64,000 nucleotides of DNA from Ruegeria pomeroyi. Its GTDB lineage: Bacteria; Pseudomonadota; Alphaproteobacteria; Rhodobacterales; Rhodobacteraceae. Location: the NCBI RefSeq assembly GCF_021405525.1, contig NZ_JAGQAG010000004.1:62001-126000 (forward strand). The letters are read 5' to 3'. The translations under genes were made by a program, and so were the position numbers. Positions within the stretch are counted from its first letter, which is position 1, and each line of letters begins with the position of its first letter. Below, piece after piece: positions 32,086-46,856 of the stretch. The notes below the pieces were generated by a model. The model worked only from the letters and a program-made list of their open reading frames with translations, was not told the origin of the DNA and did not search any database.

Positions 32086-32661
32086 TCAGTCGCGCCCCAG
32101 CGCCTTCCTGAACGCGCTCAATGTGGATTTGAAGGGATGGCCTGACATGCTCAGGTTCAGAGGCAAAGGTGGGCCGTTTCTGACCAACGCTTCCTCTAGC
32201 TGCCAAGGGGCGTCATGGTGGACCACAGAAATTCCGGCATGGTCTTCGATCCAGTCGGTTAGGTTTTCCTCATGATCTTTGGCCATACGCACCCGATCAC
32301 CGGCATCCCTGTAGAACTCGAATCCCAGTTGATCCTTCAGTAGCGCAGCGAGTGATTGACGAAGAGTTGAGGATCGGACTGAGCCACGTAGGTGGTTGCG
32401 CCAAAGACGCTTTCTGACAGGCGTAGCTGAACCCGACTTTGCCGGTCGGTCCTTCGGGGGCGCTATGCCGATATAGAGCAAGTGCTTGCCGTCAAATTCA
32501 CAGCAGCCGCCTCTGGGAACTTCAGGAAGCGTGTCATCGAACCACCAGCCGTACAGCCCATGCGTGACTTCATGTTCTTCAATGTGGGTCAATATGTCGG
32601 CTGGCCGAACGAGCTTGGCCGGTTCCAAAACCTGTTTGGCTGCTATCTGGTCGGCTTCCAT
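32086..32661 (-). CDS. GIY-YIG-type nuclease-like protein
   Basis: From the ATG at 32661, 191 residues contain the GIY half as HGLYGWWFDD and the YIG half as KHLLYIGIAP. RKRLWRNHLRGS with a catalytic-type Arg, STLRQSLAALL and a conserved C-terminal MSGHPFKSTLSAFRKAL follow. This matches a stand-alone GIY-YIG subfamily common in bacterial islands. The ATG ten codons upstream (32691) has no ribosome-binding site. It appears intact, unlike its neighbours, and its role is unknown. Confidence 0.7.
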   Translation of the reverse strand: MEADQIAAKQVLEPAKLVRPADILTHIEEHEVTHGLYGWWFDDTLPEVPRGGCCEFDGKHLLYIGIAPPKDRPAKSGSATPVRKRLWRNHLRGSVRSSTLRQSLAALLKDQLGFEFYRDAGDRVRMAKDHEENLTDWIEDHAGISVVHHDAPWQLEEALVRNGPPLPLNLSMSGHPFKSTLSAFRKALGRD

Positions 32662-32972
32662 GCCCACCCCAATCTGCGAGCGCCCTCGCATTGACTGGTG
32701 ATCGGGGTGTTGGAAATCCGCACGTACACGGACCCTGTGCCTTTAGCCGGGGCCTGTTGTATAACACAGGCACCCCGACCATAGGGTCAAGGTTTCAGCC
32801 GATTGCTCGGCCTAGTACGTGAGGGGTTTCCACGCCCCAACATGGCCGCGTCTGCCATGTCGAGATCAGTGGTAGCAGCAATGCAAGAAAAGCTAAAGAC
32901 GTTCTGGGGTTATCCCTGACAGCGGCGACATGGGAGTCTTATCGATCTGCATCAGTAACCAAGGAGATCGAC

Positions 32973-33173
32973 ATGCCCGACATCATCACGCTGAAGGCCC
33001 TTTGCGAAGAACTGAAGATTGACCCGCGCGAAGCACGCGAACGCCTGCGCGCTGCCGTCACCGACGCCAAGGCGAACCCTGAACTGGCCAAGGCGAGGAA
33101 GCCGCGCACCCCGTGGCAATGGGTGAAGGGGTCAGCCGCGGAGAAGGAGGCGAGAAAGGCCTTAGAGGTATGA
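32973..33173 (+). CDS. small conserved hypothetical protein
   Basis: This 66-residue protein has a clear AAGGAG site before the ATG at 32973. It is highly charged and helical (LKALCEELKIDPREARERLRAA, then RKPRTPWQWVKGSAAEKEARKAL). Similar short proteins occur widely in Rhodobacterales, to my recollection, but without a known function. It is the only plus-strand gene in this island segment. Confidence 0.65.
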   Translation: MPDIITLKALCEELKIDPREARERLRAAVTDAKANPELAKARKPRTPWQWVKGSAAEKEARKALEV

Positions 33174-33268
33174 TGCGCCTCAGAGCATTCTTTGCTGTGA
33201 GTGCGTGATACGGAAGTCCGCTTTAACGAGTGAGCAGTTCTAGTATGATTGGATTAGTCAGGCAGGGC

Positions 33269-34083
33269 CTACTTTAGCTTCAAAACAGGCAACGCCCGAG
33301 GAGCTTGACCTCCATCGTAGCAGGAAAACACGACGCTGTCGTTGACTTTGGGTAGTTCGCCAAAGACGCTGTCTTTATGAAAAAAGACATCATCACCTGT
33401 GGTGCGAATATAGCCATAGGCGTCATACAGGTAGCTCTTGACCGAACCGAGCTTTCGATCTGAGACCGTGTAGCATAGCGTGTCACACATCTCTACAAGT
33501 TGGTCGGCTGTCGGCCGGTCTTCTGGATTGGACTGCAGGCACCGGCCAGCAAGCTCAATGATTTCCTCTGCGAGAGGCCTAAACTGCGATTTTGATGTAA
33601 CAAATTTGGGTGTGCTGATAGGAGAGTTCTTGGTGATATTGCCCACCGCCCGAAGGCCTGAGCCATAAGGATAATCACCGTAAAGAATGTGTAAGGCAAT
33701 CGCACCAATTGACCAAACATCCGCTGGAAGGCCAACAGTCTCTGGCGCATCGATTGCTTCAGGTGCCATATATGGAATTGCGCCTAGGGCGGTCGCCGAC
33801 GCCGAAAGTGGGGCGTCGCCTCCCTCAGCAGCTTCATCCAACTCTGCTTTGGCCATTTTTGCGATGCCGAAATCAGTTACTTTCAATTCTGTAACATTGT
33901 AGCCACCTACGACCATAATATTTGTCGGTTTGAGATCACGGTGGACCACATCATTGTGGTGCGCAGCAGCTACGCCTTTCGCTAAGTGCCGAAAAATCTT
34001 CGCGGCAAGGTAAGGGTCAACATAGTCTGTTCTGGTAAGCAGTGCTGCTTCTGGGTCTTGCCCTTCGATCAATTCTTCTACTA
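33269..34083 (-). pseudogene. Ser/Thr protein kinase with C-terminal cold-shock-like domain, N-lobe lost
   Basis: The frame begins in the kinase hinge (LVEELIEGQDPEAAL) at the IS boundary and has an intact C-lobe. This includes HRDLKPTN (catalytic loop), VTDFGIAKMA (Mg-binding), an APE motif (MAPEAIDAPE) and ADVWSIGAIALHILYG. The glycine loop and VAIK Lys are missing. After the kinase, the last 55 or so residues (YGYIRTTGDDVFFHKDSVF, then VNDSVVFSCYDGGQAPRAL) look like a cold-shock/OB fold. The lost N-lobe and IS junction make it non-functional. Confidence 0.8.
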
Positions 34084-34934
34084 GGACATGTTGACAAAAG
34101 GGATTCACAGGGCGCGCTGATCGTTATTCAAGCTGGTATCTGCGATGGAGACCAGCTTGGCACGAGACCTGATGTCGGACGAGGAATGGGCGTTCTTTGA
34201 GCGTTTCATCCGGACAGTCCGCGCCCCGAACGGGCGCAAACCTTCCAACCACCGCCTTGTTCTTGATGGGATTTTCTGGATCGCGCGCACAGGCTCTCCC
34301 CGGCGCGATCTGCCGGAAGAGTTCGGCAAGTGGTCAAGCGTCTACCGCCAGTTCCGGCGTTGGACGCTGGCGGGGCTCTGGGAGCAGATCATGGACGCCC
34401 TGAACGAAAGCGGCGTGGTCCCGCACGCACTGCAAATGATCGACAGCACCGTGGTTCGCGCCCATCATCAGGCAGCGGGCGCAAAAGGGGGACTCCGCGA
34501 CAGGGTTTTGGCCGTTCGCGTGGCGGCTTCTCGACCAAGATCCATCTCCTCGTCAATGCAGCAGGGCTGCCCATGAGGACCGAGATCACAGCGGGGCAAA
34601 CCTCCGACTATCTCGGCTTCGATCTGGTCATGGTCGACAATTTGCCGACACCAAGTGTTCTGCTGGCCGACCGAGGCTATGACGCTGACAGCATTCGGGA
34701 AACCATGGACAAACGGGATGTCCTACCGGTCATTCCGATGCGCAAGTCGCGCAAAAAGCGCGTTGGCGTGGACCGATCACTATACCGGCTGCGCAACCTG
34801 GTCGAACGGTGCTTCAACAAGCTGAAGAACGCCCGCCGCGTCGCCACCCGCTACGACAAGACTGCGGAGAGCTTCCTCGGCTTCATCGACATCACGTCAA
34901 TACGCCTTTGGGTGCGCCATTTGTCAACATGACC
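34084..34934 (+). mobile_element. IS5-family (IS427-type) insertion sequence
   Basis: This 851-bp element has imperfect terminal inverted repeats: left GG-A-CATGTTGACAAA, right complement GG-T-CATGTTGACAAA. TA flanks each end (34082-34083 and 34935-34936), consistent with a 2-bp target duplication. It carries one transposase split over two frames. It sits exactly between the truncated PP2C and kinase genes. Confidence 0.85.
34145..34932 (+). CDS. IS427-type transposase (two frames, programmed frameshift)
   Basis: The first frame (143 codons from 34145) holds the DUF4096-type N-terminal part (LMSDEEWAFFERFI, then NHRLVLDGIFWIARTGSPRRDLP) and the first catalytic Asp in MIDSTVVRAHHQAAGAKGG. The second, in the -1 frame to 34932, holds GFGRSRGGFSTKIHLLVNAAG, LADRGYDAD with the second Asp, and RNLVERCFNKLKN with the Glu. 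The frames meet at AAAAGGGGG (34483-34491), a plausible slippery site. Fusion restores a normal DDE transposase, so the element may be active. Confidence 0.85.
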
Positions 34935-35321
34935 TAACGTCGAACCACCCCTTCCGAGATAATCGCGATAAACAGCTTCATTGGCAAAATGTGCCGCCTG
35001 CTTCAATTGTGCTAACGGTGACGAAAAGCCAACTTGAGACAGGACGCTGATTTCAGACGTAAATGCCGCAATTGCAAGGGCTGCACACGCTGCGCCATCA
35101 TCCATCCCACCAATACCATCGGCAACAACAGCTACAGCGTATTCGCGTCCTCGAGCGTCAAATCCCTTGAAGGCAATCGCTTTGTCTTGGTTGTCGCTGC
35201 GAACGTTCCCTATCTCGCTCGCGATTGCTCCGTGTAAAGAAGCAACCTTGCGAACACCAGAAGAGCCTGTCTCGCGACGCAACCAGTTGTATAGCTTTCT
35301 CTGTATGAAACTGCTTTCCAT
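34935..35321 (-). pseudogene. PP2C-family protein phosphatase, N-terminal part
   Basis: From the ATG at 35321 the frame encodes about 128 residues. They include the PP2C motifs VRSDNQDKAIAF and VAVVADGIGGMDDGAA (metal-binding Asp residues), then AHFANEAVYRDYLGRGGSTL. The conserved GG-T-T-L block is reached exactly where the IS begins, and the rest of the catalytic domain is missing. Removing the IS in silico joins this frame in phase to the kinase fragment. It probably once opposed the neighbouring kinase. Confidence 0.8.
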
Positions 35322-35579
35322 GAATACCGATTTTTGGTGGCCACTCGCCTAGCGTATCTTCCTTCGTGAAACATAGCGTTAGCTGTAGGGAGGAGGCAAT
35401 CTCTGACTGTGATTTTCAGTGTGTTCCTAAGTTCTGCCCACCTTTGGAAGTCGTCATCCCACCGACGTCGCACGTATCAGCACTCGTTTCGAACAGTTGG
35501 CACCCACGCGACACCCAGTTCGGAATGCTTTCAGAGCAAAATCGCGGCGCAAAAGGTAACACGCTGATATTGTTTGATA
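35322..35579. other. intergenic region before attL
   Basis: About 260 bp upstream of the PP2C fragment and left of the integrated element. It should hold the phosphatase promoter. No gene, repeat or RNA structure is evident. Confidence 0.4.
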
Positions 35580-35630
35580 AAATGGTGCCCGGGGGCGGAA
35601 TCGAACCACCGACACGAGGATTTTCAATCC
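35580..35630. repeat. attL, 51-bp direct repeat
   Basis: Identical over 51 bp to 45498-45548. Within it, 35583-35630 copies the 3' part of tRNA-Phe (from the CCA to the anticodon region), on the minus strand. It lacks the 5' half and is not a functional tRNA. Confidence 0.92.
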
Positions 35631-35735
35631 CTCGCTATTCTCGAAAAAACAGGTACTTGTAAGGTTGAGGCACGTCAAACCGGAGACGGAGCGTCAAGCA
35701 CTTACGCAGCGATTGTCAAACCCGATCACAGGCGC

Positions 35736-35927
35736 ATGTCGAGAATGTTGGGCTGCGCTTTGGTTTTCGCCGATGTAGATGGTTGGACGGCCTTCACGCA
35801 CGCATCTACCGCCTTTCTGACGGCTTCAGAGAGGCAGGAGCTGGCAGTAGCCGCCCTCAAGGCAATACCACCAGACGATCAAATTACGTTGTTCAGTCAC
35901 TTCTTGAACGCGGAGGTGGCGGCATGA
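35736..35927 (+). CDS. small hypothetical protein at start of head operon
   Basis: From the ATG at 35736 there are 63 codons (core LVFADVDGWTAFTHASTAFLTASERQELAVAALKAIP). A longer frame starts inside attL but translates tRNA sequence. Its stop overlaps the connector start (ATGA), supporting real translation. I do not recognise it. A small-terminase function cannot be excluded but has no support. Confidence 0.45.
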   Translation: MSRMLGCALVFADVDGWTAFTHASTAFLTASERQELAVAALKAIPPDDQITLFSHFLNAEVAA

Positions 35928-36472
35928 AGATGCTTGTTAGCCGAGCGTACACGAGCGCAAACGACCCGTTCAACATGGCTGAACTCAAAGACCATCTAAG
36001 GGTGGACTTTGACGAGGATGACAGCGCAATTCGGACCATTGGCCGGGCAGTCGCCTCAGAGATTGAACAGGTTACCCAGGTCGCGCTGCTGACCCAGACA
36101 ATCACGGTGACAATCTTCGATCCTGGTTGCGATGTAGGCTTGAGCCTGCCTATCGGCCCCGTTGCCACGGACACGACACCGACCATTACCGTAGACGGTG
36201 TAGCCTTCACCGCGTTTGCCTTCATGGGCGGCATCCGGCCCTACATCCGTTGGGGCGACAGTTTCTTTGATCTGACCCCCAGTCGGATAAGCATCGAGTA
36301 TGTGGCCGGGTTTGGCGAAGACATGTCCGCCGTACCTGAAGACCTTGCACAAGCCCTCATGGATCAGGCCGCGCTGCACTATGACGGCCGGTCCCCCATG
36401 AACGCCAAATCGTTGACCACTTCCCCCCACATGGCGCGCATCGCGGCCCGGTATCGCGGGGTGCAGGCATGA
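35924..36472 (+). CDS. phage head-tail connector (phiE125 gp8 / HK97 gp6-like)
   Basis: This 182-residue protein follows a GGAGG site. It has the family layout: MAELKDHLRVDFDEDDSAIRTIGRAVASEIEQVTQ near the start, a beta-rich middle, and the C-terminal ISIEYVAGFGEDMSAVPEDLAQALMDQAALHYDGR. Such proteins form a ring under the portal and gate DNA in the head. It is placed at the start of the operon instead of after the capsid gene. Confidence 0.8.
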   Translation: MKMLVSRAYTSANDPFNMAELKDHLRVDFDEDDSAIRTIGRAVASEIEQVTQVALLTQTITVTIFDPGCDVGLSLPIGPVATDTTPTITVDGVAFTAFAFMGGIRPYIRWGDSFFDLTPSRISIEYVAGFGEDMSAVPEDLAQALMDQAALHYDGRSPMNAKSLTTSPHMARIAARYRGVQA

Positions 36473-37170
36473 CCCTGAATCGCTTCGATTGGTTGAAATC
36501 CGTGATGCGCTCTGACGTGAGCCCCTCTGCGAAGAACGTGGCCACGGTGTTGGCAGTGCAGTTTGCAAATGACGAGACAGGCCAGCTCAACCCGTCGCGC
36601 GACACCCTGGCGGATTATCTCAATGTTCATCGCGACACCATCAAAAGGGCGATCCGCGAGCTCAGGAATGCCGGTTGGTTGATCGTCTTCGAGGGTCGCG
36701 GGCGCGGCAATTCGAGCGGCTTCCGATTGGTTTCTCCTGGCAAGGTTGTGGCCATTACAGCGGCCAAAAAGCGGGCAGATTTGCACCGGGAAAAGGGGGC
36801 GGACATGCACCCTTATTCCGAAGAAAAGGGGGCAGATTTGCACCGAAAAGGGGGCAGATTTGCACCCTCCTATATAAGGCAGGAACAATCTATTGAACAA
36901 AGGGCGCGCGAGGCAAAGGCCGGAGGCTGCCCTGTCGACCGGCTTTCCCGGATCGATCCCGGTTCGTACCGGGTGACAGCGTGGGACGAATGGTTGACCG
37001 AGCGCGGGTGGCCATGTCTCGCCGATCTGCAAGTGAAGCAGGAAGGCGGCTACCTCGTGCCCTACGCCATGCCACCCGAAGACCCGGATGGCGCGGCGGC
37101 GCGAGTGACGAACCGCTACCTGTCCTGGGCGTGTAACCGGGGAAGCGAACGGCACGAGGCAAGCGCATGA
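36469..37170 (+). CDS. helix-turn-helix replication-initiator-like protein with internal iterons
   Basis: This 233-residue protein has a winged helix at about residues 17-75 (SPSAKNVATVLAVQFAN, then SRDTLADYLNVHRDTIKRAIRELRNAGWL), as in HTH_36-type phage initiators. Residues of about 100-133 are a repeated K/R-GADLH segment created by DNA iterons. The C-terminal part (AWDEWLTERGWP) resembles other phage replication proteins. It overlaps both the connector and terminase genes by four bases. Lambda O and similar initiators also contain the origin within their own gene. Confidence 0.65.
   Translation: MTLNRFDWLKSVMRSDVSPSAKNVATVLAVQFANDETGQLNPSRDTLADYLNVHRDTIKRAIRELRNAGWLIVFEGRGRGNSSGFRLVSPGKVVAITAAKKRADLHREKGADMHPYSEEKGADLHRKGGRFAPSYIRQEQSIEQRAREAKAGGCPVDRLSRIDPGSYRVTAWDEWLTERGWPCLADLQVKQEGGYLVPYAMPPEDPDGAAARVTNRYLSWACNRGSERHEASA
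36773..36866 (+). repeat. four iterons inside the initiator gene (candidate origin)
   Basis: GGGCAGATTTGCACC occurs at 36773-36787, 36830-36844 and 36852-36866. A variant, GGGCGGACATGCACC, lies at 36797-36811. Start-to-start spacings are 24, 33 and 22 bp, near multiples of the helical turn. An AT-rich stretch (TATATAAGG) follows at once, a typical place for strand opening. Confidence 0.75.
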
Positions 37171-38858
37171 GCGAGGCCCGGCAAAAGACCAGAAAATGGT
37201 GCAAGGCGGATGGTTCGGAGCTGCCGCCTGCCGATGTTGGGCAAGCCGACCTCTTCGCGGATGGTCCCAATGCCGCAACTTTGGCCTGCCCTGGTCACCG
37301 CGCATCCAAGTTGTCAATTTTCGCGCTCGGGCCGGAACTGGCCGACGCGACCCCCGCTGAAAAAGCTATGCAATTCATGCATAGCCTACGCATCCCCGAG
37401 GGGCCGAATGCCGGGAAACCTGTTTCACTCGCACCATTTCAGCGCCAATTCATCGAAGGCGCGATGGCCGAAGACACCGCCAACGCCATTCTCAGCATCG
37501 GGCGCGGCAACGGCAAATCTGCGATCACGGCGGGCCTTGCGCTCGGCGGTCTCATTGGCGTCTGGGATCGCCAGCCCCGGCGGGAGATCATCGCAGCCGC
37601 GCGGACGCGGGATCAAGGCCGCATCATCTGGGACTTCGTGGCCGGGTTCGCTGCCACCCTACCGCTCGAGCTGCAACGCCGCCTGATCTATCGCCGGGCC
37701 CCGCGCCTCGAAATCGAGTTTGAGGGCGACGGCGGCGGGCACGTCCTTCGCGTCATCGCCGCTGACGGCAAGTCCGCCCTGGGCGGCGCGCCGACGATGG
37801 CAATCCTGGACGAACGCGGCCATTGGGCGCTTGATCGCGGCGACGAGCTGGAACACGCGCTGCTGTCTGGTCTCGGCAAGCGGGACGGACGCGCCTTCCT
37901 CATCAGCACGTCCGCAAGCGACGACACGCACCCGTTTTCCCGGTGGATCGACGATCCGGCACCCGGTTCCTACGTCCAGGAACACCGACCTGCGCCGGGC
38001 CTGCCCGCCGATGACCCCGAAAGCCTACTGATCGCCAACCCCGGCGCGCCGCACGGCATCGGTGGTTCGCTGGAATGGCTGGAAGCACAAGCCAAGAGGG
38101 CGATTGCGCGCGGCGGATCCAGCCTCACGAGCTTCCGGCTCTACAACCGCAATGAGCGCGTGTCCGGCGAATCCCGCGACCTGCTGATTACCCTCGATGA
38201 GTGGCTGAACTGCGAAACCGACACCCTGCCGCCGCGCCAGGGCGGCGTTGTCATCGGGATCGACCTGGGCGGCTCTGCCTCGATGACGGCGGCGGCATTC
38301 TACTGGCCCGAGACCGGCCGGCTGGAAGCCCTCGGCACCTTCCCGTCGCAGCCGGCGCTGCTGGACAGGGGCCAGGCGGACGGTGTGGCCGGGCGCTATG
38401 TCGAGATGCACGACAGGGGCGAATTGTCCATCCTGGGCGACAAGACGGTTCCCGTGGCCCCGTGGCTGGTCGAGGTGATGCGCCATGTCGAGGATCAGCC
38501 TGTTATCGCGATTACGATGGACCGCTACAAACAGGCCGAGCTGGGCGAAGCGATCAGCCGGGCGGGCATCCGCGCTCCGCTGGTCTGGCGCGGGCAGGGA
38601 TTCCGCGACGGTGGCGAGGATGCAGAGCGGTTCCGCCGCGCCGCCTTCGATGGCCTAGTGAAGGCCAAGCCGTCCCTGCTGTTGCGCTCCGCCTTCGCGG
38701 ACGCCGTCTGCCTGCGCGACCCGGCGAACAACATCAAGATTGCGAAGGCCCGATCCACGGGCCGGATCGACGCGGCGGCGGCTTCCGTCCTCGCCGTGGC
38801 GCAGGGCGCGCGCATCGCGGCTCAACCCCAGACAAAGGCAAGAATGGCATGGTTCTGA
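37167..38858 (+). CDS. phage terminase large subunit
   Basis: This 563-residue packaging motor has an N-terminal ATPase with Walker A SIGRGNGKS (about residues 112-120) and Walker B-like MAILDERGHW. Its C-terminal RNaseH-fold nuclease has IGIDLGGSASM and a later Asp in AITMDRYKQ. It is full length for the family (Terminase_1/P27-like). No small terminase is recognisable nearby. Its presence means the element can package DNA itself. Confidence 0.92.
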   Translation: MSEARQKTRKWCKADGSELPPADVGQADLFADGPNAATLACPGHRASKLSIFALGPELADATPAEKAMQFMHSLRIPEGPNAGKPVSLAPFQRQFIEGAMAEDTANAILSIGRGNGKSAITAGLALGGLIGVWDRQPRREIIAAARTRDQGRIIWDFVAGFAATLPLELQRRLIYRRAPRLEIEFEGDGGGHVLRVIAADGKSALGGAPTMAILDERGHWALDRGDELEHALLSGLGKRDGRAFLISTSASDDTHPFSRWIDDPAPGSYVQEHRPAPGLPADDPESLLIANPGAPHGIGGSLEWLEAQAKRAIARGGSSLTSFRLYNRNERVSGESRDLLITLDEWLNCETDTLPPRQGGVVIGIDLGGSASMTAAAFYWPETGRLEALGTFPSQPALLDRGQADGVAGRYVEMHDRGELSILGDKTVPVAPWLVEVMRHVEDQPVIAITMDRYKQAELGEAISRAGIRAPLVWRGQGFRDGGEDAERFRRAAFDGLVKAKPSLLLRSAFADAVCLRDPANNIKIAKARSTGRIDAAAASVLAVAQGARIAAQPQTKARMAWF

Positions 38859-39190
38859 ACTCGGGAAGCCTCAACCGGCGCATTCAAATTCTTCGGCAGT
38901 CAACGACGCCGGACGGGTACGGCGGTTCCGAAGTGACATGGGACAACCTTGGCGGCCCCCTGTATGCCGCGCGGCGCGACGTATCGGATAGTGAGCGCCT
39001 TCGCGCTGGGGCTTGGGACAACAAGCTTGTGACCCGTTTTACCATTCGCGCTTCCGCCTTCAGCCGCGGCATCCGGCGCACGGACAAGATTGTTCACGAG
39101 GGAACGACGTACGAAATCAGCGGGATCAAAGAGGTTCAAGCCAATCGAGCCTTTCTCGAATTGACGGCCGAGACGGAGGAACCGCTTTGA
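38849..39190 (+). CDS. phage head closure / head-tail joining protein
   Basis: This 113-residue protein begins MVLNSGSLNRRIQILRQSTTPDGYGG and continues WDNLGGPLYAARRDVSDSERLRAG. These are features of the SPP1 gp16 / HK97 gp7-like head-completion family. It overlaps the terminase stop by 10 bases. With the first connector it completes the neck to which a tail docks. Confidence 0.85.
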   Translation: MVLNSGSLNRRIQILRQSTTPDGYGGSEVTWDNLGGPLYAARRDVSDSERLRAGAWDNKLVTRFTIRASAFSRGIRRTDKIVHEGTTYEISGIKEVQANRAFLELTAETEEPL

Positions 39191-39522
39191 GCATCCGCAA
39201 GGAACATCACCGGTACTCCCGAAAGGTTACCTGCACAAAACGCTGGAAAGTGCTGCGGGCCGAAATACTCGAACGCGACCGTTACAGGTGCCGTTCCTGC
39301 GGCTGCGGCGGGCGGCTTGAGGTGGATCATATCAAGCCCGTCCGGACAAACCCCGAGCTTTCCTATGAACCGGGCAACCTTCAGGCGCTTTGCCCGGGTT
39401 GCCACACGAAAAAGACCAGAATCGAGTGCGGGCACCTCCCGCCCCGAGAAGACCGCCAAGACTGGCGGATAGCCGTCGAGTCGCTTGAGCGTCCCGGCAA
39501 ACCTGTTGAGCAGAAAGGATAG
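39187..39522 (+). CDS. HNH endonuclease
   Basis: A TTG start at 39187 overlaps the previous stop and has GGAGG eight bases upstream. The 111-residue product has CRSCGCGGRLEVDHIKPVR and NLQALCPGCHTKKTR, a zinc-finger-associated HNH motif. In HK97-like cos phages an HNH protein beside the terminase is required for cos cutting and head maturation. The same role is likely here. Confidence 0.85.
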   Translation: MSIRKEHHRYSRKVTCTKRWKVLRAEILERDRYRCRSCGCGGRLEVDHIKPVRTNPELSYEPGNLQALCPGCHTKKTRIECGHLPPREDRQDWRIAVESLERPGKPVEQKG

Positions 39523-39525
39523 AAA

Positions 39526-40791
39526 ATGCTCGAATCCGTGAAGATCGCCCGGCGGCAAAGCGAAATCCGCCAGAACCTCGCCGAGCTGGCGGGCAAGGAA
39601 AACCCGTCCGAGGATGAAGTCCGCCAGATGACTGACCAGGACCGGGAATACCGCTCCAACGAGACCCGCTATCGCGCGGCCTTGATCGCCGAAGACACTG
39701 AACGCCGTGACGCAGGTTCCGAGCTGGAAACCCGTTCCGCCCAGGAATGGGCCGAGCTGATGGCCGGGTTCGAGATGCGCCAGGTTGCGCTTGCCCTGGA
39801 CGAAGGGCGGCAACTCGATGGACAGACGGCCGAGATCGTAACCGAGCTGCGCAGCGCGGGCGGCTTCCGTGGTATCCCGGTGCCGTGGCAGGCGCTGGAA
39901 ATCCGGGCCGGTGAAACCGTGGCCAGCGGCACCCCGAACCCGATCCAGACCCGCCCCATCATCGACCGGCTTTTCCCGGACAGCGTGGCGGCGCGCATGG
40001 GGGCGCAGATGATCAGCATCGAGGCGGGCGCGGTGGAATGGCCGGTCACGACCTCGGCCGTCACGGCAGGCTGGGCGGATGGCGAGACGGCCAACGTGGC
40101 CGGGCCGACCACCTACGCCACCACCGACCGCGCCATGTCGCCGGACCACAACCTCGGCATTCAGATGCGCATCACGCGCAAGACGCTGAAACAGTCCGGC
40201 GCGGCGCTTGAACAGGCGGTGCGGCGCGACATGAGCGGGGCCATGGGCGCGGCGATGGATCATGCCGCATTCCTCGGCACCGGCGCCAACGGGCAACCAC
40301 TGGGCGTGATCACTGGCGCGGCAACCTACGGCATCACGTCCACGGCCGTTGGTGCATCCGCAAGCTGGTCCGCGTTCCGCTCCGCTGTGACACGGTTCAT
40401 GACCGCCAACGCGGCCGGTTCGCCCGATGCGGTGCGGGCCCTGATCCGGCCCGAGCTGTGGGACTTCCTCGATGACAGCTTGATCGACGGCACCGCCGTG
40501 TCCGAGTGGGACCGCCTGGTGAAGAACATCCCCGCAGGCAACATCGCCATGACGAACAACGCGCTGGCCGCCCCGTCCGGTTCCCCGGTCGAGACGCAGG
40601 CGCTGTTGACCACGGCAGCGGGCGGCGTGGCCCCGATCTTCATCGGCGCATGGGGCGCGGTGGACATGATCCGTGACCCCTACAGCGATGCGCAGTCCGG
40701 CGGGCTGCGGATCACCGCGCTAGCCACGATGGATGTGACGGTGGCGCGTCCGGCTCAGCTCGAACTGCTGACCGAGCTGGATCTGGCGTGA
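39526..40791 (+). CDS. HK97-family major capsid protein
   Basis: This 421-residue capsid protein has an N-terminal coiled-coil scaffolding (delta) region of about 110 residues (EIRQNLAELAGKENPSEDEVRQM). The HK97 fold follows, including DRLFPDSVAARMGAQMI, FLGTGANGQPLGVI and IFIGAWGAVDMIRDPYSDA. The fused delta domain implies cleavage by the protease encoded next. The gene order MCP-protease-portal is the reverse of the usual one. Confidence 0.93.
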   Translation: MLESVKIARRQSEIRQNLAELAGKENPSEDEVRQMTDQDREYRSNETRYRAALIAEDTERRDAGSELETRSAQEWAELMAGFEMRQVALALDEGRQLDGQTAEIVTELRSAGGFRGIPVPWQALEIRAGETVASGTPNPIQTRPIIDRLFPDSVAARMGAQMISIEAGAVEWPVTTSAVTAGWADGETANVAGPTTYATTDRAMSPDHNLGIQMRITRKTLKQSGAALEQAVRRDMSGAMGAAMDHAAFLGTGANGQPLGVITGAATYGITSTAVGASASWSAFRSAVTRFMTANAAGSPDAVRALIRPELWDFLDDSLIDGTAVSEWDRLVKNIPAGNIAMTNNALAAPSGSPVETQALLTTAAGGVAPIFIGAWGAVDMIRDPYSDAQSGGLRITALATMDVTVARPAQLELLTELDLA

Positions 40792-41429
40792 TGCTCTGGG
40801 GCGCTAGGTCAGGCGGCTTAGAGCTGCGACAAGAAAGCGGCGGAGATGTGGTCATGACCGGGCGCTTTCCTTACAACAAGTCCGCCGTCCTCACGGACGG
40901 CGGGAAGAAAGGCCGCCCGCGCAAAGAACGGATCGCATCGCGGGCTTTCGGATATCGGATCAACACGCCGTCCGATCACGGTGGCAAGAAGGACATTCAC
41001 TTCCTTGTCGGCCACGACTGGGATCGCCCTCTTGCCTCTACGCGGTCTGGGACTTTGGATATCACGGACACGGATGAAGCAGTTATCTTCGTTGCGACAA
41101 TCACCGTCGAGTTGCAGCAAGCCAACTATGTCCGGGACTTTCTGGCGGGGTATGCCGCTGGGCTGATACTTGGCCTTTCGCCCGGCTTTCGCATTCCACC
41201 TGAGCGCGTTTCGCCGAAAGCCGAAAGCGTAGAAGAGGAAGATCCATCGGAAGGTATGGCGATTATCCGCACGGTTCATGACGCGCTGCTTTACGAATTG
41301 TCCGCAGTCACCCGGCCAGCCTATACCGAAGCCCAGATCGAGGCCCGGAACTGGATAACCAACGCGGAAACACCCGCCCTGGCAAGTGACGTTCGCCGTG
41401 TCCTGAACGCCCGCAACCGGTGGAGGTGA
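40791..41429 (+). CDS. HK97-family prohead protease
   Basis: This 212-residue serine protease of the U35 type has GRFPYNKSAVL, the active-site His region FLVGHDWDRPLASTRSGTLDI and a C-terminal ELSAVTRPAY containing the nucleophile Ser. The start overlaps the capsid stop (TGATG); a GTG one codon upstream is an alternative. It should remove the capsid delta domain. Confidence 0.88.
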   Translation: MLWGARSGGLELRQESGGDVVMTGRFPYNKSAVLTDGGKKGRPRKERIASRAFGYRINTPSDHGGKKDIHFLVGHDWDRPLASTRSGTLDITDTDEAVIFVATITVELQQANYVRDFLAGYAAGLILGLSPGFRIPPERVSPKAESVEEEDPSEGMAIIRTVHDALLYELSAVTRPAYTEAQIEARNWITNAETPALASDVRRVLNARNRWR

Positions 41430-41431
41430 CC

Positions 41432-42496
41432 ATGCTCGGATGGCTCATTAACAAGCTGCGCCCGATCGAGGCCCGGTCCAGCGGATCGGGCTACACGGCC
41501 CAGGTCATGGCGGCGCGTGACAGCTTCATCAGCGGCCGGCGCGGCGTGGCCGAGCTGACGGCGACGGTGCAGAGTTGCGTCAGCCTGTGGGAAGGCGGGT
41601 TTGCCATGGCGGACGTATCCGGCACCGATCTGCTGACCCGGCAGGCGATGGCGATGATCGCCCGTGGCGTGGCCCTCAATGGCGAAGCGGTCTATCTGAT
41701 CACCGAGCTGGGGCTTGTCCCCGCGACAGACTGGGACGTGACCACCCGCGACGGCCGCCCGCGCGCCTATCGGCTGTCCATCCCCGAGGCGGGCGGCGGG
41801 CGCACGATGACAGCTCTTGCGGCCGAGGTTCTGCACCTTCGGATCGGCTCGGACAACCTGACGCCCTGGATCGGAACCGCCCCGCTGCGGCGGTCCAGCC
41901 TCACCGGGGCCATGCTGCACGCGGTGGAATCGGCGCTGTCCGAGACCTTCGAGAATGCCCCGCTCGGCTCTCTGATCGTCCCCCTGCCGGACACCGGGGC
42001 CGAAGACATGGCCTCTATGCGCCATGCCTTCCGGGGGCGGCGAGGTTCTACCCTGGTCATCGAGGGCGTGGCACAGGCGACGGCCGCAGGCATGAACCCC
42101 CAGATAGGGCAAAAGCCGGATCAGCTCTCGCCGGACCTGTCTCGGAGCATGACAGCCGAGACGCTGGCAGCGGCCCGTGAGGGCATCCTGATGGCCTATG
42201 GCGTCCTGCCGTCCCTAGTGAACCGCGCGGCCACCGGCCCGGCCGTCAGGGAAGCGCAGCGCCAGCTTGCAATCTGGACCCTGCAACCCATTGCCGTGCT
42301 GCTGGCCGAGGAAGCATCCGCCAAGCTGGGCGCTACGGTCGAGATCGACACCATCCGGCCGCTGCAAGCGTTCGACGCTGGCGGACGCGCCCGTGCCCTG
42401 TCCGCGATCATCAAGACGCTGGCCGAGGCGAAAAAGGCGGGCATTCCGCCGGGCGACGTGTCCGGGGCCATGCGCATGGTGGATTGGGAGAGATAG
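41432..42496 (+). CDS. phage portal protein
   Basis: From the ATG at 41432 (GGTGGAGG upstream), 354 residues carry HK97-type portal features: VQSCVSLWEGGFAMADV, GEAVYLITELG, EVLHLRIGSDNLTPWIGTAPLRRS and AYGVLPSLVNRAATGPAVREAQRQ. The portal is the dodecameric vertex for DNA packaging. It is somewhat shorter than typical HK97 portals. It is the last gene of the rightward head operon. Confidence 0.88.
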   Translation: MLGWLINKLRPIEARSSGSGYTAQVMAARDSFISGRRGVAELTATVQSCVSLWEGGFAMADVSGTDLLTRQAMAMIARGVALNGEAVYLITELGLVPATDWDVTTRDGRPRAYRLSIPEAGGGRTMTALAAEVLHLRIGSDNLTPWIGTAPLRRSSLTGAMLHAVESALSETFENAPLGSLIVPLPDTGAEDMASMRHAFRGRRGSTLVIEGVAQATAAGMNPQIGQKPDQLSPDLSRSMTAETLAAAREGILMAYGVLPSLVNRAATGPAVREAQRQLAIWTLQPIAVLLAEEASAKLGATVEIDTIRPLQAFDAGGRARALSAIIKTLAEAKKAGIPPGDVSGAMRMVDWER

Positions 42497-42649
42497 GGCC
42501 TGGTCGCGCTCTCAGGGGCTTACATGGCTCCGCCCCAGCGACCCGGATCAGTCGGTGAGTACCGCAACAACCCCGACAGCGAGCGGCCTGTTTACACGGC
42601 AGGCGCGGCGCGCAACCCCGAGGCGGGTCATGCCTGGCGCTGGCCCGCC
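42497..42649. other. convergent gap between portal and repressor genes
   Basis: About 150 bp lie between the head operon end and the 3' end of the leftward repressor. No gene or clear terminator hairpin is visible. A plus-strand open frame across 42524-42895 is antisense to the repressor and is not believed. Confidence 0.4.
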
Positions 42650-42877
42650 TCACCCTTTCTTGAGACGCACCCCGGCCCCGCCGCCATTCTCTGCGATGAA
42701 CTCAACTCCGGCGGCTTCGAGGGCTTCTCTCATCCTGATTTGCGCCGTGGTCGAAACCACCCGCCGCTCTTTCTCGAAATCCACGATGGTGGAAAGGCCG
42801 AACCCTGCCGCCGTCGCCAATTCCGGTTGTGTCATTCCGATCAGGGCGCGCGCCGCCCGACATTGTGCTGGGGTCAT
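42650..42877 (-). CDS. XRE-family repressor of the satellite
   Basis: This 75-residue single-domain Cro/C1 protein contains AQCRAARALIGMTQPELATAAGFGLSTIVDFEKERR. It is the only leftward gene of the element and faces the rightward int operon across 81 bp containing two matching palindromes. It has no peptidase or sensor domain, so SOS-type self-cleavage is not expected. Induction by a helper-phage protein, as in PICIs, is more plausible. Confidence 0.85.
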   Translation of the reverse strand: MTPAQCRAARALIGMTQPELATAAGFGLSTIVDFEKERRVVSTTAQIRMREALEAAGVEFIAENGGGAGVRLKKG

Positions 42878-42878
42878 C

Positions 42879-42895
42879 TCAACATTTTCTGTTGA
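42879..42895. promoter_or_regulatory. operator O1 (TCAACA-N5-TGTTGA)
   Basis: A perfect 6-bp palindrome with a 5-bp spacer begins two bases before the repressor start codon. It is identical in arms and spacing to O2, 39 bp away. Binding here would block repressor translation initiation or transcription (autoregulation). Confidence 0.75.
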
Positions 42896-42914
42896 CGCGG
42901 TGTGCGCCTATCCT

Positions 42915-42937
42915 ATATCAACATAAACTGTTGATAT
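42915..42937. promoter_or_regulatory. operator O2 (extended palindrome)
   Basis: ATATCAACA-TAAAC-TGTTGATAT forms a perfect 9-bp inverted repeat with the O1 core TCAACA-N5-TGTTGA. It sits 22 bp before the start of the 148-residue gene, where a repressor would block the rightward promoter of the xis-int operon. Confidence 0.8.
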
Positions 42938-42958
42938 CCTATTCAGGAGACCCTGACA

Positions 42959-43405
42959 ATGACCAAAAACTGCGTTTCCGCGAACGGCCCCGCTATGTCC
43001 CGCCGCGCGATCCTGTCCGCTTTGCCCGCCTCTGGCGTGGCCCTCACCGCCCCTCAACTCGCCCAGGCACAAACACATGACCCGATTTTGCCTCTCTACC
43101 AAGAATGGCTGGACGCGCGCGGCGAATGGCGCGAGTTGGCCGACCTTCCGGGCAACGGAAACTGGGATGATCCCAGATCGGCTGCCGCTGCGGCCCGTGA
43201 AGATGTAGCCGAACAGCAAATGTTCACACTACAGCCAACGACATTGGAAGGTATCGGTGCACTAGCAGCTGTTGCCTGGTGCTATGTCAAACCGGACTGC
43301 ACAGATCCCGAGGAGTTTGCAGAGCTGGCGAAGTCCTACGACTGCCGCGCCGTCATGGCGATCTGGAAAGCCTGCACCGGCCAGGACGGCTACCCGGTCA
43401 CCTGA
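42959..43405 (+). CDS. hypothetical protein, first gene of the satellite's operator-controlled operon
   Basis: This 148-residue protein has AGGAGA upstream. Its N-terminus resembles a twin-arginine signal (MSRRAILSALPASGVALTAPQLAQA) though it follows 12 extra residues. The mature part includes LYQEWLDARGEWRELADLPG and paired Cys residues. Similar short proteins occur in Rhodobacterales prophages, to my recollection. Its position as first de-repressed gene makes it worth attention. Function unknown. Confidence 0.65.
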   Translation: MTKNCVSANGPAMSRRAILSALPASGVALTAPQLAQAQTHDPILPLYQEWLDARGEWRELADLPGNGNWDDPRSAAAAAREDVAEQQMFTLQPTTLEGIGALAAVAWCYVKPDCTDPEEFAELAKSYDCRAVMAIWKACTGQDGYPVT

Positions 43406-43493
43406 CCGCGCCGCTCTATCGGGCAATCGCTCCTATGGCTTGACTTGCGAAGCAATTGGAGTGATTATCCAATAGAAAGCGGTGGAGCGAACC

Positions 43494-44105
43494 ATGCATC
43501 TTGGGCAAACAGCATCCTTCCTGGCTCTGGTCCTGAATCGTCCCGAGCCGACGACAAGAATGCTCAGCCGCCTTTTGCGCGAGGGTGAGTGGATCAAGAA
43601 GGGATCGAGGGGGCGCAATGCGCCCCACATCGACGGCCCCGAACTGTCCAGTTTCCTCATCGCGTTCATGTGCTGCCCTGATAGCCCTGCCGTCGCAATG
43701 GAAAGGTTGCCCCACTTCGCCAGCCTGCCCTTGGACAGCGAAACCGGCACCAAAGCGACCTTCGCGAAGGGCCTTGCGCTCTTGCTTGAACGGCTCGCCA
43801 AGGAAACGTGGGAGGAAGCGCAGGGCAAGAAATGGAGCGTCAGCCTCTACGTGGATATGTCGGCAGCGACGATCAGCGCGGACCCGTCCGAGGAAAGCGA
43901 AATTGCGCCGGAGGAGCACGTGTTCTCGGCGCTTGTCGAAGCCCCTGACGATCAACCGATTAAGGATGCCCTGCCGTATTTCGGCGGACTGGAGACATCT
44001 TCCAAGATTCGAGACTTCACCCTCTTTCGCATCGCGAAGGTCATTCTGGCAGGCGAGCCTGACCCTCTCGATGAGATCAAGAAATCGCTTGAGGATGACG
44101 CATAA
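43494..44105 (+). CDS. hypothetical satellite protein
   Basis: This 203-residue protein is read from the ATG at 43494 (a GTG at 43482 is in frame). The N-terminal third looks like a small helical DNA- or protein-binding domain (LNRPEPTTRMLSRLLREGEWIKKGSRGRNAPH), and the C-terminus is acidic. The stop overlaps the AlpA-like start (TAATG). No family is recognised. It could be a regulator, or a factor that interferes with the helper phage. Confidence 0.55.
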   Translation: MHLGQTASFLALVLNRPEPTTRMLSRLLREGEWIKKGSRGRNAPHIDGPELSSFLIAFMCCPDSPAVAMERLPHFASLPLDSETGTKATFAKGLALLLERLAKETWEEAQGKKWSVSLYVDMSAATISADPSEESEIAPEEHVFSALVEAPDDQPIKDALPYFGGLETSSKIRDFTLFRIAKVILAGEPDPLDEIKKSLEDDA

Positions 44106-44341
44106 TGGGCAATGCGAACCTGAATATCAGCGTCATCGAAAAGCGGATGCTGAAACAGTCTGAGGCGGCGGACTATACCGGCCTGCCCGCAAAACACTTC
44201 AATACGACATGCCCGGTTCAACCGGTCGAGATGCGCCCTGGAACTAAACTTTGGGACAAGCGCGACTTGGACAAGTGGATTGATGCAATGAAGGAAGGGG
44301 CTGAGATGGCAACGCAAGACGCCATTCTTAGCAAGCTGTAA
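44105..44341 (+). CDS. AlpA/excisionase-like DNA-binding protein
   Basis: This 78-residue protein has a MerR-like winged-helix pattern (LKQSEAADYTGLPAKHFN, then LWDKRDLDKWIDAMKEG), as in AlpA and other recombination directionality factors. It lies directly before the integrase gene with a one-base overlap, the usual xis-int arrangement. It probably directs excision. Confidence 0.7.
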   Translation: MGNANLNISVIEKRMLKQSEAADYTGLPAKHFNTTCPVQPVEMRPGTKLWDKRDLDKWIDAMKEGAEMATQDAILSKL

Positions 44342-45459
44342 TGACGCGGATCAGGGTAAAGGGCTTTAAGATTTGGACGCAGAAGAAGACCCGCAAGGAT
44401 GGGTCTGTCTGGGAAAGCCGTCCCTATTGCGAACACCGCGCAACGGGCCACAAGATCGACCTTCAAAAAAAACCGCTGGGATCGGCCGAGTTTTTCGCGG
44501 AATGCGCCCGCATTGCAGCCATTGCCGAGGCGAGGAAGGCGCAAGCCCCCAAGCCGGGAACGCTTGGCGGGCTGATCAGTGCCTATTTCCAGACTGAGCA
44601 CTTTGCCAATCTTGCGGACGCCACAAAGCGCGACTATCGCAAGTGCGCTGACTTCCTGCACCCGATCCGCGACACGCCCGTTTCCGCGATCACAACGCCC
44701 CTTATGTCGGGCATACATGACAAGGCGGCGGGCAAGATCGGCTGGCGGCGGGCAAACATGGTCCGCACCTTCCTGAGCCAAGTTTTCCGCTATGCCATTC
44801 CGCGCGGCCTGATCGACCGGGACTATGCGGCGGGCGTCATTCCCAAGCCGCGTCCGAAAGATCGGCCCTATGCCAACCGGCCCTGGGCGGTCGAGGAACG
44901 CGCCGTTGTGCTGGAACGGGCCGCGCCTCACGTCCGGGTGGCGGTCGCGCTGATTATGAACACGGGCCTTGATCCGTCCGACGCGCTCAAGCTGACCCGT
45001 CGCCAGATCGACGGCAACACGATCTGGGGCGTCCGGGGCAAAACCGGGCATGAGGTCGCCATTCCTATCGGCCCGACGCTGCAAGCGGCTCTGGACGCTG
45101 CACCGGCTCACGACGCGGTGACGATCCTTGCCACGTCCACCGGGAAGCCCTGGACTTACAACGGCTTTTCGACGGTCTGGCACCGCTTCAAGAAAAAGCT
45201 GGAAGCTGAGGAAACCGTGCAACCCGGTCTGACCCTTAAGGGGCTGCGGCATACCGTGGCAACGACGCTACGCGAGGCTGGGCTTGAGGAACGCCAGATT
45301 GCGGACCTGCTGGGGCAGAAAACCCCGTCGATGGCCCGCCACTATTCCCGGTCCGCCAACCTTGCGGACCGCAACCGGATCACGATGGAAACACTCGAAA
45401 AAGAGAACGAACGCAGATCGAAAGTTGTCAAACCCTTCAAGAAAACTGTCAAACTCTGA
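44341..45459 (+). CDS. int: tyrosine-type site-specific integrase
   Basis: This 372-residue integrase has an N-terminal arm/core-binding region (AYFQTEHFANLADATKRDYRKCADFL) and a C-terminal catalytic domain. The second Arg (GLRHTVATTL, Arg303), Lys234 and the nucleophile Tyr335 (MARHYSR) are present. The first Arg position reads Asp211 (TGLDPSDAL), the His of HxxR is Lys300, and LGH is LGQ, so the active site is divergent. It ends 39 bp before attR. Confidence 0.9.
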   Translation: MTRIRVKGFKIWTQKKTRKDGSVWESRPYCEHRATGHKIDLQKKPLGSAEFFAECARIAAIAEARKAQAPKPGTLGGLISAYFQTEHFANLADATKRDYRKCADFLHPIRDTPVSAITTPLMSGIHDKAAGKIGWRRANMVRTFLSQVFRYAIPRGLIDRDYAAGVIPKPRPKDRPYANRPWAVEERAVVLERAAPHVRVAVALIMNTGLDPSDALKLTRRQIDGNTIWGVRGKTGHEVAIPIGPTLQAALDAAPAHDAVTILATSTGKPWTYNGFSTVWHRFKKKLEAEETVQPGLTLKGLRHTVATTLREAGLEERQIADLLGQKTPSMARHYSRSANLADRNRITMETLEKENERRSKVVKPFKKTVKL

Positions 45460-45497
45460 AAGGCTCAAGAATGAATATCGAGCAATATCAAGAGCTT

Positions 45498-45548
45498 AAA
45501 TGGTGCCCGGGGGCGGAATCGAACCACCGACACGAGGATTTTCAATCC
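45498..45548. repeat. attR, 51-bp direct repeat
   Basis: Perfect match to 35580-35630. It covers the 3' two-thirds of the intact tRNA-Phe gene and three flanking bases, so integration preserves the tRNA here. Confidence 0.92.
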
Positions 45549-45575
45549 ACTGCTCTACCCCTGAGCTACCCGGGC
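45501..45575 (-). tRNA. tRNA-Phe(GAA), integration target
   Basis: A complete tRNA on the minus strand has acceptor GCCCGGG with CCCGGGC, anticodon loop TTGAAAA (GAA, Phe), T-loop TTCGATT and an encoded CCA. The anticodon stem has one T-T mismatch. It is the intact copy of the satellite attachment gene and is downstream of yacG. Confidence 0.95.
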
Positions 45576-45654
45576 ACGGGAACGGCTTCTGCCGCTGGGT
45601 GGAGGCCTTCTAGGACGTGGCTGAGGCGGTGTCCAGAGGCTTTTTCAAGTTTTT

Positions 45655-45837
45655 TCAGTGCCGCAGCTTGGCCTGAGTTTCGGCCTCATCATCAAGGGCT
45701 TCGTCTTCCTCTTCAGACGAAGACGGGATCGCATAGGAGCCATTCAACCACTTGGCCAGATCAAGATCGGCGCAGCGTTTCGAGCAGAAGGGACGATAGG
45801 CGGGAACGGTTTCGGACCCGCAGATCGGGCAACTCAT
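45655..45837 (-). CDS. yacG: DNA gyrase inhibitor YacG (zinc-binding)
   Basis: This 60-residue protein has the zinc motif CPICGSETVPAYRPFCSKRCADLDLAKWLNG (paired CxxC and CxxxC) near the N-terminus and an acidic tail. YacG binds GyrB and inhibits DNA binding in E. coli. It overlaps the RNase E/G gene by four bases, a common alphaproteobacterial arrangement. Confidence 0.92.
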   Translation of the reverse strand: MSCPICGSETVPAYRPFCSKRCADLDLAKWLNGSYAIPSSSEEEDEALDDEAETQAKLRH

Positions 45838-46856
45838 GACAGCGCCTCCGACACCGGCACCCGACCGCGCTTGCGTTGCAATTCGTAATGACCCAACGGG
45901 GTCCAGCCCGCCAGGGTCGTCTCTTCGCTATCGGCCTTCAACGCGGCCCGCAGGGCGGCTTCGAACCCGCGCCTGTCCTTCTTGGCCATGGGCGCCAGAT
46001 CCAGCGTGATCTGGCCGCCCAGGCCCCGCACGCGCAGGGCGCGCGGCAGCAGTTTCGCGCAGGCGAAATTTGCCTTTTGCCCTGCCGCAAGCGAGGTATC
46101 GCTGCCGGTATTCACATCCACCGCCACCAGCGCGCGGGTGGGCTGGATATAGAGGTGGCCGCCGCCCGGCAGTGGCTCGGCGATGCCGCGCACCCGCTCT
46201 AGCGCGTCGAGCACGCCATGATCCTCGAACCCGCCCGCCTCGGTCACAACTTCGGCCGGATCGGTCCAGTCGCGCCAGGCCAGAACATGCGGGCTGTCAC
46301 CTTCGATCAGGGTCTCGCAACCCTTGCCTTTGTCCTCCAGCACCTGCCGGGCCTGAGAGATCATCGCCTCGATATCCTCGGCAATCACCTCGGCCGCGAC
46401 CTCGGCACAAGACGAGCGCAGGATCAGGCCAAAGCCATGGCCCTCCATCACATCATGCGCGATTTCCAACAGGCGGTCACGCTCGGCCTCGTCGCGGATG
46501 CTGCGCGACAGGTTCAGCCCCGGCGCCTCGGGCGTCACGATGGCATAGCGGCTCTTGAACAACAGCTTAGCCGTGGCCGGAATCGCCTTGCCCGGCTCCG
46601 CATAGCCGGTGACCTGCACCAGCAGATGGGCACCGGGAGCCAGCCCCTTGACCTGACGCAGAAAGGCCGGGCCGTCGGGGGTGGTCAGGAACATGCCACC
46701 CTGGCCCTTGACCGGCCGGTCGGCGCGGGCGCGATAGATGGTGCCGGGTGGGGGCGCGTCGCCAGCGATCAGGAAATCGTCCAACTGACCATCGACCATC
46801 AGGGCCGCGGCCTCGCGACCTGCGACATGGTCCAGTACGATGGTGCGGCCCTTCAT
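45834..46856 (-). CDS. ribonuclease E/G family protein (short form)
   Basis: This 340-residue protein has the RNase E/G catalytic DVNTGSDTS and the following [11 protein letters not shown] segment. It lacks most of the N-terminal S1 part and any C-terminal scaffold. This compact form sits between maf and yacG in Rhodobacterales. It probably processes rRNA or tRNA ends, but whether it is fully active is unknown. Confidence 0.85.

What the first reader, a model, noticed from the sequence alone, without database searches (positions are those of the whole stretch)
35580..45548. Tail-less, head-encoding satellite (cf-PICI-like) in an alphaproteobacterium
The 10-kb element has its own integrase, att repeats, repressor, initiator with iterons, TerL, HNH, capsid, protease, portal and two connectors, yet no tail, lysis or clear small-terminase gene. 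All frames look intact. Capsid-forming PICIs with this logic (own heads, borrowed tails) are established in other bacteria. A compact version here would be a marine alphaproteobacterial branch with its own gene content.
Basis: partly seen in the sequence, partly recalled or inferred. Interest (0 to 1): 0.85.

Follow-up and report, generated by a model that had tools for sequence, protein, structure and literature searches.

The report
Tail-less head-making phage satellite
A 9.9-kb piece of DNA parked in a bacterial tRNA gene encodes a virus head but no tail, looks like a satellite that would borrow tails from another phage, and carries a small folded RNA that matches no catalogued RNA family.

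Summary
Window 35580-45548 is a 9.9-kb insertion between 51-bp att repeats at tRNA-Phe. It carries integrase, small repressor-like protein, O-like initiator with internal iterons, TerL, HNH, capsid, protease, portal and two connectors; no tail, lysis or recognisable small-terminase gene was found.

It is unlikely to be a decayed prophage. Relatives occur in 34 genome loci and 124 viral contigs (125 distinct capsids). In 19 of the 34 a repeat pair at a tRNA spans 9.3-10.9 kb. Head genes are under purifying selection. Tail searches were negative. Capsids of 54% identity or more occur in 30 of 295 genomes of the host family. Of five head proteins compared with phage records, only tail-facing Hc1 has closer relatives (44%, Paracoccus siphophages), as expected if tails are borrowed.

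It works like a capsid-forming PICI, but I do not file it as one: no TerS was found and kinship with known cf-PICIs was not tested.

New: at the portal stop begins a ~120-nt pseudoknotted RNA with strong covariation and no Rfam match. It follows the portal in 64 of 112 eligible relatives and recurs in elements with unrelated heads (lambda-type terminase and portal), which partly share replicon and repressor. Its function is unknown.

The parts
35580..35630 (.). attL, 51-bp direct repeat of the tRNA-Phe 3' end
   Evidence: D2, 100%; G004 without the element
35924..36472 (+). head-tail connector/adaptor Ad1 (gp6-like)
   Evidence: phrog_442 E 4e-19, PF05135 over cut-off; start codon read by eye
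36469..37170 (+). replication initiator, O-like (HTH_36 winged helix, low-confidence linker, C-terminal domain)
   Evidence: phrog_270/391 and PF13730; model pLDDT 65, pTM 0.37; Foldseek: winged-helix hits only, none at E <= 0.001
36767..36876 (+). iterons inside the initiator gene (putative origin)
   Evidence: D1/D3; function inferred
37167..38858 (+). large terminase TerL
   Evidence: phrog_9 E 7e-60, PF20441, PF03354
38855..39190 (+). head-closure protein Hc1 (Phage_HCP)
   Evidence: PF05521 E 2e-19; 44% to Paracoccus siphophages
39187..39522 (+). HNH endonuclease
   Evidence: PF01844, phrog_144
39526..40791 (+). major capsid protein, HK97 type
   Evidence: PF05065 E 6e-17
40788..41429 (+). 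prohead protease S78
   Evidence: PF04586
41420..42496 (+). portal protein
   Evidence: PF04860
42495..42614 (+). structured, pseudoknotted RNA beginning at the portal stop codon
   Evidence: model R1 92.5 bits; covariation; no Rfam match
42650..42877 (-). small Xre/HTH repressor-like protein
   Evidence: phrog_7241, HTH_31 just under cut-off; relatives
42959..43405 (+). u148, conserved protein of unknown function
   Evidence: relatives; no family
43482..44105 (+). u207, conserved protein of unknown function
   Evidence: relatives; no family
44105..44341 (+). small excisionase-like protein
   Evidence: phrog_66 E 0.003 only
44341..45459 (+). tyrosine integrase
   Evidence: PF00589, phrog_1; 81-91% identical in L023, L061, L063, which hold the same att core
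45498..45548 (.). attR inside tRNA-Phe
45501..45575 (-). tRNA-Phe(gaa), integration target

Best explanation
It is a compact phage satellite that makes its own head. Shown by sequence: it sits in tRNA-Phe with a tyrosine integrase and att repeats, carries an initiator and a head and packaging set that is complete apart from a recognisable small terminase, and has no detectable tail or lysis genes. Inferred: a helper phage relieves the small repressor; the element excises, replicates from iterons inside its initiator gene, packages about 10 kb with its own TerL and HNH into its own small head, closes the head with its own connectors, and uses the tail (probably siphovirus-like) and lysis of the helper.
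For: Insertion at tRNA-Phe, absent from a same-genus genome. Core order TerL-HNH-capsid-protease-portal kept in relatives. 19 of 34 genome loci have a repeat pair with one copy at a tRNA (eight kinds), 9,317-10,859 bp apart. No tail or lysis Pfam family in 96 of 230 accessory ORFs plus two shorter ones from 20 elements. No hit of 12 tail-region proteins in the relatives, Hc1 control positive. Median dN/dS 0.10-0.30 for seven head genes. A contig with a 99-bp terminal repeat (L129) and one with permuted gene order (L248) suggest circular or concatemeric forms. Hc1 is 44% identical to Paracoccus siphophage proteins, while portal and Ad1 find no phage record and the listed TerL and capsid matches are 22-30%.
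Against: No TerS was found, so packaging is incomplete on paper. No helper was identified; the host genome has no PF10145 tape-measure match and its only other PF05521 match lies in a GTA-like cluster. Nothing here shows induction or particles. The protease diverges as much as the connectors (median identity 0.58 against 0.60-0.62), so divergence of the neck is not a clean sign of tail matching.
Confidence: 0.82

Rival explanations
1. It is a prophage that lost its tail and lysis genes and is decaying.
For: Single TerL copy, no helper seen, no TerS.
Against: Relatives with 125 distinct capsid proteins share the compact plan; constant 9.3-10.9 kb where delimited; purifying selection; no tails found.
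Confidence: 0.03
2. A satellite of the resident gene-transfer agent: it builds its own head and uses GTA tails, so no phage infection is needed.
For: The host has a GTA-like cluster with tail genes (recognised from recalled gene order), and GTA clusters are common in this order (recalled).
Against: Hc1 is only 26% identical to the GTA head-completion protein but 44% to siphophages.
Confidence: 0.07
3. A domesticated capsid island that packages host DNA or serves the host instead of itself.
For: Same gene kinds as a GTA head module.
Against: Own integrase, att sites, initiator with iterons, scattered occurrence (30 of 295 family genomes, my count of capsid matches of 54% identity or more), many tRNA sites.
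Confidence: 0.04
4. For the RNA: it is a DNA packaging site (cos/pac) rather than an RNA.
For: Lies beside the head genes; HNH-type packaging needs a cos site somewhere (recalled).
Against: The same structure sits beside unrelated terminases; 98 G-U against 14 A-C cells in the helices argue for RNA read from the + strand (on an alignment fitted to the model); absent from 48 of 112 eligible relatives.
Confidence: 0.08

Closest known systems
Capsid-forming PICIs (cf-PICIs; Alqurainy et al. 2023, not held; definition seen in passages of PMC10690885 and PMC10803314)
   Same: Integrated, tail-less, own capsid, protease, portal, connectors, TerL and HNH; said to depend on helpers only for tails.
   Different: About 10 kb against an average of 14 kb given in PMC10803314; no TerS found; O-like initiator and no primase in the window; [quoted passage not shown] carries the new RNA.
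Streptomyces satellites MulchRoom/MiniFlayer (PMC10690885, passages)
   Same: Satellites with own capsid and packaging genes, described there as unlike PICIs by sequence.
   Different: Helpers are virulent Streptomyces phages; genomes with terminal repeats; no sequence relation was tested here.
cf-PISP satellite-plasmids of Vibrio (PMC13230959, passages)
   Same: Head-only element with HNH and terminases; comparable to the circular-looking relative L129 without a recognised integrase.
   Different: The window element is chromosomal with its own integrase.
P4-like satellites
   Same: Small satellites (average about 10 kb in PMC10803314, passages).
   Different: P4 redirects helper capsids (recalled); this element encodes its own.

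Membership tests
cf-PICI | Own major capsid, protease, portal and connectors | tested here: met
cf-PICI | Large terminase and HNH | tested here: met
cf-PICI | Small terminase | tested here: not met
   No TerS family in Pfam or PHROGs beyond phrog_141 E 0.007 on the initiator; a diverged TerS cannot be excluded
cf-PICI | No tail genes | tested here: met
   window; relatives
cf-PICI | Integrase and att sites | tested here: met
cf-PICI | AlpA/excisionase-type regulator (recalled as part of PICI models) | tested here: inconclusive
   phrog_66 E 0.003 only; no Pfam match
cf-PICI | Primase/replication gene (recalled) | tested here: inconclusive
   O-like initiator, no primase in the window; Prim-Pol and D5_N in some relatives
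cf-PICI | Sequence kinship with known cf-PICI capsids | not tested
   no reference cf-PICI was fetched
cf-PICI | Induction by a helper phage and chimeric particles | not testable with these tools
   needs experiment
GTA (RcGTA-like) | No integrase, no self-replication, fixed cluster with tails (recalled) | tested here: not met
   integrase, att, initiator, no tails
Known RNA family (Rfam 15) | Match to any of 4227 models | tested here: not met
   window 35000-46000 at E <= 1 gave only tRNA; L020, L011, L030, L129 at gathering scores gave only tRNA

The most novel reading that the evidence does not exclude
Rhodobacterales harbour a modular satellite lineage in which one backbone (tRNA integrase, small repressor, either of two replicon cassettes, and a new pseudoknotted RNA) is combined with interchangeable, unrelated head modules (HK97-type here; lambda-type terminase/portal with a protease-capsid fusion elsewhere). 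The RNA would be a dedicated late-stage effector made from the end of the head transcript, acting on the helper or on particle assembly.
Probability: 0.4. Interest if true: 0.85.

Novelty: new variant of a known kind. Interest (0 to 1): 0.74.

Why it matters
Head-making satellites are described mainly from enterobacteria and Gram-positives (list in PMC10803314). A compact alphaproteobacterial lineage found in about one in ten sampled genomes of the host family (30 of 295) broadens how widely 'own head, borrowed tail' is used, offers a natural test of which parts must match a helper tail, and supplies a conserved, unnamed RNA that recurs with unrelated head modules, so that its role can be tested in one small element.

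Tried and rejected
Stop-codon read-through stimulated by the RNA: the frame after the portal stop is open for 35 codons or more in 25 of 50 loci, against 22 and 16 for the other frames; rejected. RNA unique to tail-less elements: rejected, since it also lies beside tail-chaperone and tape-measure-like genes (L236, L274 and others of that cluster; the tape-measure match is below Pfam's cut-off), beside tail-like genes in L308 (read by eye) and in a Paracoccus podophage. RNA universal in the lineage: rejected, 64 of 112 eligible loci, or 61 of 101 after collapsing identical portal ends; a second search with R2 of 41 loci that had no match, plus L315, L316 and L306, found only L306. Initiator as small terminase: not supported, though the model is poor. 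Neck genes diverging because of tail matching: weak, the protease diverges as much. Single-sequence folding energies of the RNA were no better than shuffles (z -0.84 to 0.57 for four sequences); the case rests on covariation. Alignment A3 is fitted to model R1 and leans to its structure; the MAFFT seed A2 shows the same with smaller numbers. Shuffle controls do not keep relatedness. A first profile of the 390-nt region wrongly included initiator-type rows; one search used a cleaned set of 47. PHROG scan of the accessory ORFs listed only 25 of 73 families. The weak phage match in GEC_PNG14 was not confirmed by the model; Phi05_1400 B was not tested. RNAs of L200 and L271 found no phage record. 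Loci L317-L321 were fetched and not analysed.
Full report
Observation. The element lies between identical 51-bp repeats, 35580-35630 and 45498-45548, 9,918 bp apart. The right copy overlaps tRNA-Phe. Family searches give, left to right, a gp6-like connector, an O-like initiator with a winged-helix domain, TerL, a head-completion protein, HNH, HK97-type capsid, S78 protease and portal, then a small HTH protein on the other strand, two proteins without family, a weakly excisionase-like protein and a tyrosine integrase. A same-genus genome, G004, has tRNA-Phe without the element; the contiguous left-flank match there is only 15 bp beyond the att core, and similarity to the left flank resumes further away. 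That fits a clean insertion but another island may sit at the site in G004.

Relatives. The TerL query found 34 loci in the species genome collection, 58-90% identical; 29 bear Rhodobacterales names and five are other alphaproteobacteria (grouping by recalled taxonomy). In viral contigs capsid found 94 and TerL 84 relatives, 80 kept of each, 124 loci together. Some contigs are the same elements as the genome loci; 153 loci give 125 distinct capsid sequences. TerL-HNH-capsid-protease-portal keep their order; in a second clade the Ad1 query does not match and there is a gap between protease and portal. In 19 of the 34 genome loci a direct repeat pair has one copy at a tRNA (Phe, Glu, Arg, Cys, Thr, Leu, Lys, Asn), 9,317-10,859 bp apart; ten of these repeats are only 15-24 bp. 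The other 15 gave no such pair, several because the contig is short. One relative (73%) lies in a 1.58-Mb plasmid record of Pseudorhodobacter turbinis. In a sample of 295 family genomes I count 30 with a capsid match of 54% identity or more; the next match is 34%. In a class sample of 289 one genome outside the family had such a match (G574).

Phage records. Against 50,697 records all 140 TerL and all 28 capsid matches are below 60% identity, and the 20 listed of each are 26-29% and 22-30%. Portal and Ad1 find nothing. HNH and protease were not searched.

Not a wreck. For 18 to 21 loci of the closer clade, median pairwise identity is TerL 0.86, portal 0.87, HNH 0.83, capsid 0.77, head closure 0.62, connector 0.60, protease 0.58. 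Median dN/dS is 0.10-0.30 over the pairs not saturated at silent sites; a single gene, head closure, reaches 1.33 in its highest pair. Of 230 accessory ORFs of 100 aa or more in 20 delimited elements I scanned 96, with two shorter ones; the 20 Pfam families found are integrase, DNA-binding, replication or head-completion domains. Twelve proteins from tail regions of a Paracoccus siphophage, of an RNA-bearing tailed element and of the host's GTA-like cluster hit none of the held loci L001-L159 at E 1e-3, while the siphophage Hc1 did. L129 is a 10,022-bp contig with a 99-bp terminal repeat and no integrase recognised in its ORF list; L248 has portal ahead of TerL, a permuted order.

Tail. Of the five head proteins compared with phage records, Hc1, which faces the tail (recalled), is the one with closer relatives: 10 records, best 44% in Paracoccus phages Pthi1 and Shpa, where it sits just before the tail genes. 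It is 26% identical to the head-completion protein of the host's GTA-like cluster. This favours siphovirus-like tails, as an inference.

The RNA. At the portal stop codon begins a conserved non-coding stretch. A seed of 30 sequences (from 48 sources with the motif, aligned) supports three helices and a pseudoknot: 95.1% of cells paired against 86.4% in shuffles and 37-46% when slid; 68 double-change cells against 22.5. With 80 model matches, 22 of 26 pairs have double changes, 300 cells against 80.6. The pseudoknot, tested on 57 distinct rows, scores 9.59 against 8.08 +/- 0.22, above all 500 shuffles, with CGG-CCG, CCC-GGG, GGG-CCC, GGAC-GUCC and others. G-U cells outnumber A-C 98 to 14, which points to the + strand. 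Rfam gave no match. Of 137 relatives searched (of 158 held), 112 were eligible and 64 have it after the portal: 43 of 54 with Ad1 and 21 of 58 others; 59 of the 64 begin -6 to +47 nt from the stop. Collapsing identical portal ends gives 61 of 101. In the rest other sequence fills the slot.

Elsewhere. The model hit 23 of 295 family genomes, 26 places; 3 of 385 in a class sample including the own genome, and 8 of 398 in a phylum sample including the own and four other family genomes. Of the 25 places besides the own one, 11 are in this lineage and 14 are not, one of which (L202) is cut by the contig end. Two scans for the RNA core gave 87 viral contigs; 73 came under new ids, of which 15 repeat held elements. 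Of the 73, 50 have this lineage's head (35 not held before) and 23 do not. In 19 of the 37 other loci a GpA-type TerL is present, in 14 with its stop within about 8 nt of the RNA start, which is approximate for the viral contigs. Representatives of its neighbours are a Nu1-like TerS (just below cut-off), a lambda-family portal and a protease-capsid fusion. Of eight genome loci tested for repeats, L203 (48 bp, 9,851 bp apart), L210 (46 bp, 10,154) and L200 (30 bp, 13,673) have them at tRNA-Cys and L213 (57 bp, 8,959) at tRNA-Thr; the other four have none at a tRNA. L213 holds integrase, Toprim and DUF3987 proteins, an HK97 capsid and TerS. Some RNA-bearing loci are tailed. Among the 19 GpA loci, 7 share the 75-aa gene and the 390-nt non-coding stretch of this lineage (two of them, L210 and L255, the same element), two share the initiator, and 8 the repressor-like gene (12 of all 37). 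So replicon, RNA and repressor appear to travel between unrelated heads.

Reading. The element works like a cf-PICI. I do not file it as one, because TerS is a stated component (PMC10690885, passages) and was not found, and because capsid kinship was not tested. PMC10803314 (passages) lists cf-PICIs mainly in other groups with a mean of 14 kb; PMC10690885 calls them widely distributed. The two primary surveys are not held, so an earlier listing in alphaproteobacteria cannot be excluded. Searches for satellites with capsid and Rhodobacterales, Alphaproteobacteria, Roseobacter or Rhodobacter terms and for such an RNA gave no paper that, from its listing or the passages I read, describes either; I read no supplementary files.

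Noticed in passing
window 42495-42614 (+): New covarying pseudoknotted RNA at the end of the head operon, shared with elements carrying unrelated heads and a few tailed phages.
   Followed up: partly
L020:9376-10000 and about 70 relatives; not in the window: A 75-aa gene followed by about 390 nt of conserved non-coding DNA ahead of TerL; replaced in the window by the initiator gene with iterons, so perhaps an alternative replicon.
   Followed up: partly
L203, L210, L200, L219, L237, L268: Second kind of compact RNA-bearing element with Nu1-like/GpA terminase, lambda-family portal and protease-capsid fusion; three of them with repeats at tRNA-Cys.
   Followed up: partly
L213:6100-15200: 8,959-bp repeat-bounded stretch at tRNA-Thr with integrase, Toprim/DUF3987 proteins, its own HK97 capsid, the RNA and a TerS, but no portal or TerL seen in the ORF list.
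   Followed up: partly
L129: Circular-looking 9.9-kb relative with head genes and a 411-aa polymerase-like ORF (read by eye) but no recognised integrase: perhaps a satellite-plasmid.
   Followed up: no
window 31600-35350: Kinase gene and further genes with a transposase-like gene on the left flank; part is also present in G004 beside tRNA-Phe, where a second partial att copy lies about 15 kb away.
   Followed up: partly
L306:2961-3071 (Paracoccus phage KLEP18-1): The RNA in a podophage between the lysozyme gene and genes on the other strand (57.8 bits).
   Followed up: no
L309, L310, L311: Weaker RNA matches in genomes of other families of the phylum, in mobile-element-like or chromosomal settings.
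   Followed up: partly
G250:C1:1199426-1200658 and 1212204-1212322: A capsid of this lineage and an RNA beside a GpA-type TerL lie about 12 kb apart: possibly two satellites in tandem at tRNA-Cys.
   Followed up: no
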